DNA of 11,292 nt from a bacterium (GTDB lineage Bacteria > UBA9089 > JASEGY01): positions 1 through 11,292 of the forward strand of contig JASEGY010000074.1 of NCBI GenBank assembly GCA_030019105.1, read 5' to 3'. Of the stretch, positions 1,126 through 2,264 are shown in pieces. Under the pieces are notes generated by a model that did not search any database, had not been told where the DNA came from, and saw only the letters and a program-made list of their open reading frames with translations. Made by a program: the position numbers and the translations under genes. Positions within the stretch are counted from its first letter, which is position 1. Each line of letters starts with the position of its first letter.

Positions 1126-1944
1126 TTACTCAGGCGAAGTAGTGATATAAACCTTCTTCATCACCGCTGGTTGAAGTGGGTTGTCTCTGGGGTCACGAGG
1201 CAGATTAACGATCTGGTCAGCCACTTCCATCCCTTCCACTACTTCTCCAAAAGCTGTATACTGTCCATCAAGAAATCGGGCCGGTGCGACACAGATGAAA
1301 AACTGAGAACCGGCCGAGTTCGGGTCGTTGCTTCTGGCCATGGAAAGGGTTCCTTTTAAGTGAGGCCGGGAATTAAATTCAGCTTTAATAGAATATCCCG
1401 GCCCACCTGCGCCATCGTTTGCCCGGTTCTCATCTTTGCTTAAAGGATCTCCGCCCTGGATCATAAATCCGGGAATAACCCGGTGAAAGGTCGTGCCATC
1501 GTAGAATCCTTCCTTAGCTAATTTTTTAAAGTTAGCTACATGGCCAGGGGCATCTTCCTCAAAGAAGCGGAGGACAATTTTACCCCACTTGGTCTCGATA
1601 ACGGCTAAGTCCTCTGTTTTGAGTTTCGAGTTCGGGGTACTCAGTGCCAGGCCGGCTCGGTCTGGCGGGTCGTCGGGTTTTGAGTTTACTTGTATTTTCT
1701 CTTCCTTACTCACAGCTTGTTTCCCAGTAGTTCCTTCCTCAATTGGCGGAGTCTCTTCCCGAGCAACCTCTTTAGTTTCTTCCAGGATAGTCTCTTCGGT
1801 TTCCTCCGTGACAGCAGGCTGTTTTTCTTCTACTACCGGCGCGGTCTCCTCTGAAACAGCCTTTTCAGCCTGTTGCTGGCTTCCACAACCCCAAAGGCCA
1901 AATATCAGGATTGCCATCAAAAAATAAGGTGACTTCTTGATCAT
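1126..1944 (-). CDS. Lipoprotein peptidyl-prolyl cis-trans isomerase (cyclophilin type)
   Basis: Cyclophilins isomerise proline peptide bonds during protein folding. The 272-residue product begins with a signal peptide ending in a lipobox-like LWGC (Cys20), so it should be lipid-anchored outside the cytoplasmic membrane. A Glu/Thr-rich linker (about 25-90) follows, then a cyclophilin domain (about 113-268) with FHRVIPGFMIQGGDP (153-167, catalytic Arg155), GSQFFI (212-217) and LDGQYTAFGEV (225-235). The usual Trp/His near the last motif is Tyr, which is common in bacterial members. The start at 1944 has a strong site (GAAAGGAG, 1951-1958). The linker residues about 101-110 (LSTPNSKLKT) appear to come from a simple repeat. 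A palindromic element is inserted immediately upstream of the ribosome site. Confidence 0.93.
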   Translation of the reverse strand: MIKKSPYFLMAILIFGLWGCGSQQQAEKAVSEETAPVVEEKQPAVTEETEETILEETKEVAREETPPIEEGTTGKQAVSKEEKIQVNSKPDDPPDRAGLALSTPNSKLKTEDLAVIETKWGKIVLRFFEEDAPGHVANFKKLAKEGFYDGTTFHRVIPGFMIQGGDPLSKDENRANDGAGGPGYSIKAEFNSRPHLKGTLSMARSNDPNSAGSQFFICVAPARFLDGQYTAFGEVVEGMEVADQIVNLPRDPRDNPLQPAVMKKVYITTSPE

Positions 1945-1950
1945 CTCTTT

Positions 1951-2049
1951 CTCCTTTCGTAAGCGTTCAGGGTGTAATGAAGGAAAAAGGGGAAAGACGG
2001 TTACCTTTTTCCTTATTTACACTACCTACCTGAACGGTTACCTCCTTTC
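1951..2049. repeat. 8-bp target duplication flanking element 2
   Basis: CTCCTTTC occurs at 1951-1958 and again at 2042-2049, exactly abutting the two ends of the 1959-2041 element. On the minus strand it reads GAAAGGAG, the Shine-Dalgarno sequence of the cyclophilin gene. Exact flanking direct repeats are the footprint of transpositional insertion. Confidence 0.75.
1959..2041. mobile_element. MITE-like element 2 (83 bp), GTAANYRYTCAGGT family
   Basis: The left end GTAAGCGTTCAGG (1959-1971) and right end CCTGAACGGTTAC (2029-2041) are inverted repeats with one mismatch. Inside them, GTGTAA and AAGGAAAAAGG pair with matching sequence on the other side, so the unit is nearly all hairpin. It is flanked by a perfect 8-bp direct repeat. 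It encodes nothing and would depend on a transposase supplied elsewhere. It lies in the 5' untranslated region of the cyclophilin gene. Confidence 0.75.
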
Positions 2050-2070
2050 TACTGGCGAGTAGTAATTGGG

Positions 2071-2099
2071 GGTTGGTAATTAGAAATTAATTACCAGCC
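2071..2099. repeat. Short hairpin GGTTGGTAATTA
   Basis: A 12-bp stem (2071-2082 with 2088-2099, one G-T pair) encloses a five-base loop. It is followed by a tract with repeated CCAGTTACC-like units (about 2100-2123). A similar string, GGGTGGTAATTAGGAA, occurs near 2907-2922. This is repeat-derived DNA with no gene. Confidence 0.5.
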
Positions 2100-2125
2100 A
2101 CCGTTCACCAGTTACCAGTTGCCAA

Positions 2126-2264
2126 GCAGTCTGTCGGAGTGAAATAGAGAATCCCAATGTTCACGGCATCTTGTTGTAGTTGCAGAGCTTGCTCTGCCAA
2201 AACGTCGAGCAAGCTCGACCACTACAAAATTGCGCACAGATAGATTTTCTCTCCGACAGACTGC
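2126..2264. repeat. Palindromic element (139 bp) with nested paired hairpins
   Basis: The outer ends GCAGTCTGTCGGAG (2126-2139) and CTCCGACAGACTGC (2251-2264) are a perfect 14-bp inverted repeat. Inside, TTGTAGT (2174-2180) pairs with ACTACAA (2221-2227). These enclose two hairpins, GCAGAG-CTTG-CTCTGC (2182-2197) and GTCGAG-CAAG-CTCGAC (2204-2219), whose loops are complementary. The element ends three bases from the stop codon of the aspartic protease gene and may form the 3' end of that transcript. Confidence 0.7.

What the first reader, a model, noticed from the sequence alone, without database searches (positions are those of the whole stretch)
1951..2049. A MITE-like insertion whose target duplication regenerated a Shine-Dalgarno sequence
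The 83-bp element at 1959-2041 is flanked by an exact 8-bp direct repeat. On the coding strand of the cyclophilin gene that repeat is GAAAGGAG, the gene's ribosome site. The element landed in the ribosome site, but duplication on insertion left an intact copy at normal distance from the ATG and an orphan copy upstream. Insertion can thus change the leader (now a long hairpin) while keeping translation, which may change expression without loss of the gene.
Basis: seen in the sequence. Interest (0 to 1): 0.75.

Follow-up and report, generated by a model that had tools for sequence, protein, structure and literature searches.

The report
Small transposon inside a ribosome-binding site
A short non-coding transposon landed exactly in the ribosome-binding site of a protein-folding gene, and the 8-base duplication made on insertion left a working-looking copy next to the gene; a related genome shows the uninterrupted site, and a survey of sister insertions suggests that such hits happen about as often as chance predicts.

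Summary
Confirmed. An 83-bp palindromic element (1959-2041) sits between exact 8-bp repeats that read GAAAGGAG, the Shine-Dalgarno (SD) of the cyclophilin gene 1126-1944(-). The same-genus genome G001 carries the predicted empty site with one GAAAGGAG.

Its end motif occurs 150 times in the window's genome and 515 times in G001, with 0 reversed-motif hits in each. In 1.90 Mb I found 85 elements flanked by 8-bp repeats matching at 7 or 8 positions. Ends and repeat length resemble the single-ORF (ISBst12) group of IS66 insertion sequences. Two relatives carry an IS66 transposase gene between such ends; the window's genome shows none.

The SD hit is not unique. In 5 of 85 elements the duplication overlaps an SD-like motif (cyclophilin, gyrA-type, KhpA-type, UPF0102 and zinc-ribbon genes), against 5.6 expected if insertions fall evenly in their gaps. 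So no targeting and no visible avoidance of SDs, on five cases. Between SD and start codon none was seen (0 of 79, 3.1 expected). Folding predicts that the SD stays open. Effects on expression are untested.

The parts
1959..2041 (.). 83-bp MITE-like element (non-coding, near-palindromic)
   Evidence: inverted ends and hairpin, z -7.0; absent at the orthologous site in G001; its arms recur elsewhere in the genome with other interiors
1951..1958 (-). gene-proximal 8-bp target duplication, GAAAGGAG: the presumed SD in use
   Evidence: ends 6 nt before the ATG; single copy in G001
2042..2049 (-). orphan upstream copy of GAAAGGAG
   Evidence: exact repeat of 1951-1958
1959..1971 (+). terminal inverted repeat GTAAGCGTTCAGG
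2029..2041 (-). terminal inverted repeat GTAACCGTTCAGG; with the next 7 nt (GTAACCGTTCAGGTAGGTAG) identical to one end of the IS66-type element in G013
1997..2005 (-). end-like GGTAACCGT in the hairpin loop (possible cryptic third end)
   Evidence: direct repeat D1; a 43-bp half element starting at the matching point and flanked by AGATAATG repeats is seen in C396
1126..1944 (-). cyclophilin-type peptidyl-prolyl isomerase gene downstream of the element
2050..2125 (-). original upstream leader, mostly conserved in G001, displaced by 91 bp

Best explanation
The element is a non-autonomous miniature element of an IS66-type (ISBst12-group-like) family. A transposase acting in trans cut the target with an 8-bp stagger that happened to span the SD of the cyclophilin gene (shown: the duplication and an empty site; inferred: the transposase and the cut). 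Gap repair duplicated the eight bases, so an intact SD stayed 6 nt from the ATG while the old leader was pushed 91 bp upstream (shown). If transcription starts upstream, the transcript carries a hairpin that ends directly at the SD. Folding predicts that the SD stays single-stranded, so translation is probably preserved (inferred). Such SD hits arise at about the general rate of intergenic insertion and are tolerated because an 8-bp duplication is long enough to rebuild an SD (inferred).
For: Empty site in G001 with a single GAAAGGAG, gapless across the junction. 85 elements with 8-bp duplications, controls near zero. End motif 150 times in G000 and 515 in G001, 0 reversed-motif hits in each; at least one hit in 16 of 19 genomes of the phylum, several with only one or two. 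IS66 transposase genes between the same kind of ends in two relatives: G006:C299, 1505 bp, open 468-aa frame, ends GTAACCGTTCACA; G013:C277, 1563 bp, frame with two stops, one end sharing 20 nt with the window element (G013 pieces match NF033517 and PF03050). The published single-ORF IS66 element ISDge4 has ends GTGACTACTCAGCA and GTAACTGCTCAGCA and an 8-bp repeat (PMC12898284, passages). Duplication over an SD-like motif: 5 observed, 5.6 expected. SD mean unpaired probability 0.73-0.85 filled, 0.50-0.56 flank-joined.
Against: No IS66 transposase was found in the window's genome or in G001. None of the four two-ended transposase-bearing copies that I examined (L309-L312) shows an 8-bp duplication, and two of them have related but different ends (GTAACTACTCAGG, GTAACTATTCAGC). 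222 of 307 end pairs have no good duplication; many may be cross-pairs of neighbouring elements or old copies, which I did not sort. Only one empty relative was alignable and examined. No expression data.
Confidence: 0.93

Rival explanations
1. The family actively targets ribosome-binding sites or the zone just upstream of start codons, using the duplication to stay harmless.
For: Against uniform intergenic positions, insertions 9-21 nt from a facing start codon are in excess: 8 observed, mean 2.74, 0.8% of 1000 draws reach 8.
Against: Compared with each insertion's own gap: 8 observed and 6.35 expected near starts, 8 observed and 6.19 expected near stop ends, in 75 gaps. Duplication over an SD-like motif: 5 observed, 5.6 expected. 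Duplications are AT-rich in the middle, not SD-like. In same-direction gaps of up to 600 bp the insertions lean to the stop side (median relative position 0.74, 50 gaps), not the start side.
Confidence: 0.06
2. The hairpin is a regulatory leader (attenuator, riboswitch or terminator) native to the cyclophilin gene, and the flanking repeat is incidental.
For: Strong hairpin directly before the SD.
Against: Absent from the same gene in G001; the arms occur at other places of the genome; no Rfam match at gathering scores; no terminator-like site in 1850-2750.
Confidence: 0.03
3. Ancestral presence with precise loss in G001 (element plus one repeat copy excised).
For: Only one filled and one empty genome are in hand.
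Against: Loss of the element with exactly one 8-bp copy is expected to be rarer than insertion (general knowledge). The upstream regions of more distant relatives were not examined for this.
Confidence: 0.04

Closest known systems
IS66 family, ISBst12 group (ISDge4 of Deinococcus geothermalis, PMC12898284, passages read)
   Same: Ends of the kind GTAAC..TCAG, 8-bp repeat, single transposase gene in the autonomous form; two genomes of this phylum carry such a gene between ends of the window's kind.
   Different: The window element is 83 bp with no gene; its ends are GTAACCGTTCAGG, not GTAACTGCTCAGCA; no transposase was found in its own genome.
Bacterial MITEs such as MITEAba12 (PMC6382973, passages read)
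   Same: Short, gene-free, inverted ends shared with an IS, target duplications.
   Different: MITEAba12 is 111-114 bp, with 9-bp duplications (8 bp in one subgroup); the 85 elements here run from 33 to 487 bp with very different interiors.
BOX and RUP repeats of pneumococcus, with ERIC and Correia elements as cited there (PMC3049150, passages read)
   Same: Interspersed repeats that can enter transcripts and alter expression.
   Different: Different hosts; the passages read do not describe a duplicated SD. Ends were not compared by a tool.

Membership tests
MITE | terminal inverted repeats | tested here: met
   13 nt, 92% complementary
MITE | target-site duplication and an empty site in a relative | tested here: met
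   8/8 repeat; empty site in G001
MITE | no transposase gene inside | tested here: met
   83 bp is too short for one
MITE | many copies in the genome | tested here: met
   150 exact end motifs, 0 reversed; 24 elements with 8-bp duplications in the 0.48 Mb of G000 examined, which were chosen because they hold ends
MITE | ends shared with an autonomous element | tested here: met
   IS66-type elements in G013 (broken frame) and G006 (open frame); none found in the same genome
IS66 family, ISBst12 group (as parent) | IS66 transposase gene, single ORF, between the ends | tested here: met
   G006:C299: 468-aa frame, PF03050 E 4.5e-39, 1505 bp end to end
IS66 family, ISBst12 group (as parent) | 8-bp duplication at the transposase-bearing copies | tested here: not met
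   0 of the 4 two-ended copies L309-L312 has it; the miniature copies do
IS66 family, ISBst12 group (as parent) | the transposase moves these ends | not testable with these tools
   needs a mobility assay

The most novel reading that the evidence does not exclude
An 8-bp stagger works as a built-in safety device: because it is as long as an SD, insertion into a ribosome-binding site rebuilds the site. A family with this stagger can therefore fill operons and housekeeping genes (gyrA-type, KhpA-type, cyclophilin) with leader hairpins at the neutral intergenic rate, and only the few bases between SD and start codon, where rebuilding fails, stay free of insertions (0 of 79 facing starts, 3.1 expected).
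Probability: 0.3. Interest if true: 0.6.

Novelty: new member of a known kind. Interest (0 to 1): 0.42.

Why it matters
It is a clean natural experiment, filled site against empty site in one genus, for how a mobile element can enter a ribosome-binding site without destroying it. The family is dense enough (hundreds of end motifs per genome in several members of this phylum) to test statistically whether duplication length buffers transposons against harm in gene leaders.

Tried and rejected
SD targeting: suggested by a first test against uniform intergenic positions, rejected after conditioning on each gap. Regulatory RNA: no Rfam match at gathering scores, no promoter- or terminator-like site in 1850-2750. 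Transposase in the window's genome: none by PF03050 or NF033517. A MAFFT alignment of filled and empty sites misaligned the left flank and was replaced by a pairwise alignment of the joined flanks.

Further empty sites: the KhpA-type query found nothing in G000, which shows nothing by itself for so short a query. The UPF0102 (yraN-like) gene in G000 has no element directly before it, but its upstream DNA does not look alignable (by eye). The gyrA-type gene in G000 keeps a single GAGGAGTTATAATT before its ATG but has a different element end 49 nt upstream: supporting, not a clean empty site. The L058 comparison is thus the one clean empty site. A second SD lead, L027 (C440), has GAAAGGAG directly after an element end, but I saw no matching repeat at its other end in the sequence printed, and it is not among the 85.

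The genome-contig scan did not name the organism. Literature on a rebuilt SD: none found with the phrases (open-licence library only; the single hits of 54 and 63 do not describe it in the passages read). Searches for IS66-derived MITEs were seen as listings, with passages read from PMC12898284, PMC8024623 and PMC3281130. The original ISBst12, IS679 and IS66 survey papers were not seen.

Full report
What is there. The window holds an 83-bp near-palindromic element at 1959-2041 between exact 8-bp repeats CTCCTTTC at 1951-1958 and 2042-2049. On the coding strand of the downstream cyclophilin-type gene (1126-1944, minus; PF00160) the repeat is GAAAGGAG, and the proximal copy stands in the order GAAAGGAG-AAAGAG-ATG. 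The element folds strongly as RNA (-32.3 kcal/mol, z -7.0) and as DNA (z -8.0). The finding's coordinates and letters are right.

Empty site. The same-genus genome G001 encodes the same cyclophilin (72% identical). Its upstream DNA reads TTCTCCTTTCTACTGGCGAGTAGTAATTGGGGG, with one CTCCTTTC and no element. Joining the window's flanks at the duplication gives a predicted empty site that aligns to G001 without a gap across the junction; the local score is 202 for the filled sequence and 250.5 for the joined one. It passes. Upstream regions of more distant relatives were not examined for it.

Family. The two arms recur in the window's genome with other interiors, and the end motif is very abundant. 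GTAASCGTTCASS without mismatch occurs 150 times in G000 (78+72) and 515 times in G001 (268+247), with 0 reversed-motif hits in each; 16 of 19 genomes of the phylum have at least one, from 1 up to 720 in G013. The fetched sequence analysed is 1.90 Mb: G001 1.10 Mb (contigs C1-C30, nearly whole or their first 20 kb, not chosen by content), G000 0.48 Mb (chosen because they hold ends; part of all end-bearing contigs) and G013 0.32 Mb (five large contigs in part, others chosen for transposase matches). Of 307 opposed end pairs 28-600 bp apart, 65 carry an 8/8 flanking repeat and 20 carry 7/8; ten shifted controls gave 0-1 and 0-2. These 85 elements (54 G001, 24 G000, 7 G013) run from 33 to 487 bp. 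Their duplications are AT-rich in the middle.

Motor. No IS66 transposase domain was found in G000 or G001. In two relatives an IS66 transposase gene lies between the same kind of ends: G006:C299, 1505 bp, one open 468-aa frame (PF03050 E 4.5e-39), ends GTAACCGTTCACA; and G013:C277, 1563 bp, frame with a TAA and a TAG, one end sharing 20 nt with the window element. Pieces of the G013 gene match NF033517 and PF03050. Two more two-ended copies (G009:C86, G007:C31) have related ends, GTAACTACTCAGG and GTAACTATTCAGC. The published single-ORF IS66 element ISDge4 has ends GTGACTACTCAGCA and GTAACTGCTCAGCA and an 8-bp repeat (PMC12898284, passages); two other IS66 elements are listed with the value 8 in a column that I read as repeat length in PMC3281130 (passages; the column heads were not shown). 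Against this, 0 of the 4 transposase-bearing copies examined shows an 8-bp duplication.

Is the SD hit special? With a home-made gene caller, 8 of 85 insertions lie 9-21 nt from a facing start codon. Uniform intergenic placement gives 2.74 on average, but that control is inflated by long gaps and uncalled genes. Conditioned on each insertion's own gap (75 gaps), 6.35 are expected near starts, and near stop ends 8 are seen against 6.19. Duplications that overlap an SD-like motif number 5 of 85 (83 facing starts), against 5.6 expected. The five are the window's cyclophilin; a gyrA-type gene (GATCCAGG|AG); a KhpA-type gene (AGAGGGAT); a UPF0102 gene (CATGAGGT, duplication 7/8); and a zinc-ribbon gene whose SD need not depend on the duplication because AAGGA follows it (families by Pfam). 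So SD insertion happens at about the chance rate and is not visibly purged. With five cases the power is low.

Departures from even placement. In 50 same-direction gaps of up to 600 bp the insertions are not uniform: the median relative position is 0.74 towards the stop side (KS p 8e-5), and 11 of 50 lie beyond the gap on the stop side. The duplication covers the upstream gene's stop codon in 11 of 75 facing stop ends, 5.4 expected (P 0.02), and in 4 more the called stop lies in the element's own GTAA end. At start codons the 0-7 nt zone has 0 of 79, 3.1 expected (P 0.05). These tests were made after seeing the data, and the start calls are rough. The pattern fits the idea that insertions are tolerated where the duplication rebuilds a signal (SD, stop codon) and lost where it cannot (between SD and ATG). 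It also shows that even placement within gaps is only an approximation, which touches the 5.6 expected above.

Consequence. With 10-60 nt of upstream leader, the SD in the filled leader is predicted mostly unpaired (0.73-0.85), not worse than in the flank-joined leader (0.50-0.56). Translation is therefore probably kept. Whether the hairpin changes mRNA stability or level is open. No promoter- or terminator-like site was found in 1850-2750.

Verdict. Observation and interpretation hold. The element is a new member of a known kind, a MITE with IS66/ISBst12-type ends. The rebuilt SD is real, recurrent and about as frequent as chance predicts, a by-product of an 8-bp duplication. No report of it was found in the searches, which cover open-licence papers only.

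Noticed in passing
window 2126-2264: A second insertion in the same intergenic region: 139 bp, 19-nt inverted ends GCAGTCTGTCGGAG.., absent in G001, though the joined flanks leave a 10-nt gap beside the junction. In the fetched G000 sequence three further copies are identical over 139 of 139 and one over 138, so it spread recently; flanks suggest a 2-bp duplication (TA, GA, TA, AA) in four of five copies.
   Followed up: partly
window 2170-2232: The inner part of that element (TTGTAGTTGCAGAGCTTGCTC.. hairpin) also occurs apart from it on 13 other contigs of the fetched G000 sequence, at 88-96% identity, as if one repeat were nested in another.
   Followed up: no
G000, G001, G013 elements: Stop codons are hit more than expected: the duplication covers a stop codon in 11 of 75 facing stop ends (5.4 expected), and in 4 more the called stop is the TAA of the element's own GTAA end.
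   Followed up: partly
L003 (G000:C396) 1501-1543: A 43-bp half element, from a cryptic inner end (GTTCCC) to the normal end, is flanked by 8-bp repeats AGATAATG, which suggests that inner ends can be used for transposition.
   Followed up: no
G000:C278 1539-1876 (L294): An element with a 7/8 duplication sits 27 nt before a ribosomal protein S10 gene (PF00338) and 2 nt from the stop of the gene before it: elements enter housekeeping operons.
   Followed up: partly
phylum-wide (G013, G018, G001): End-motif counts differ from 0 to 720 between 19 genomes of one phylum: bursts in some lineages, near absence in others.
   Followed up: no
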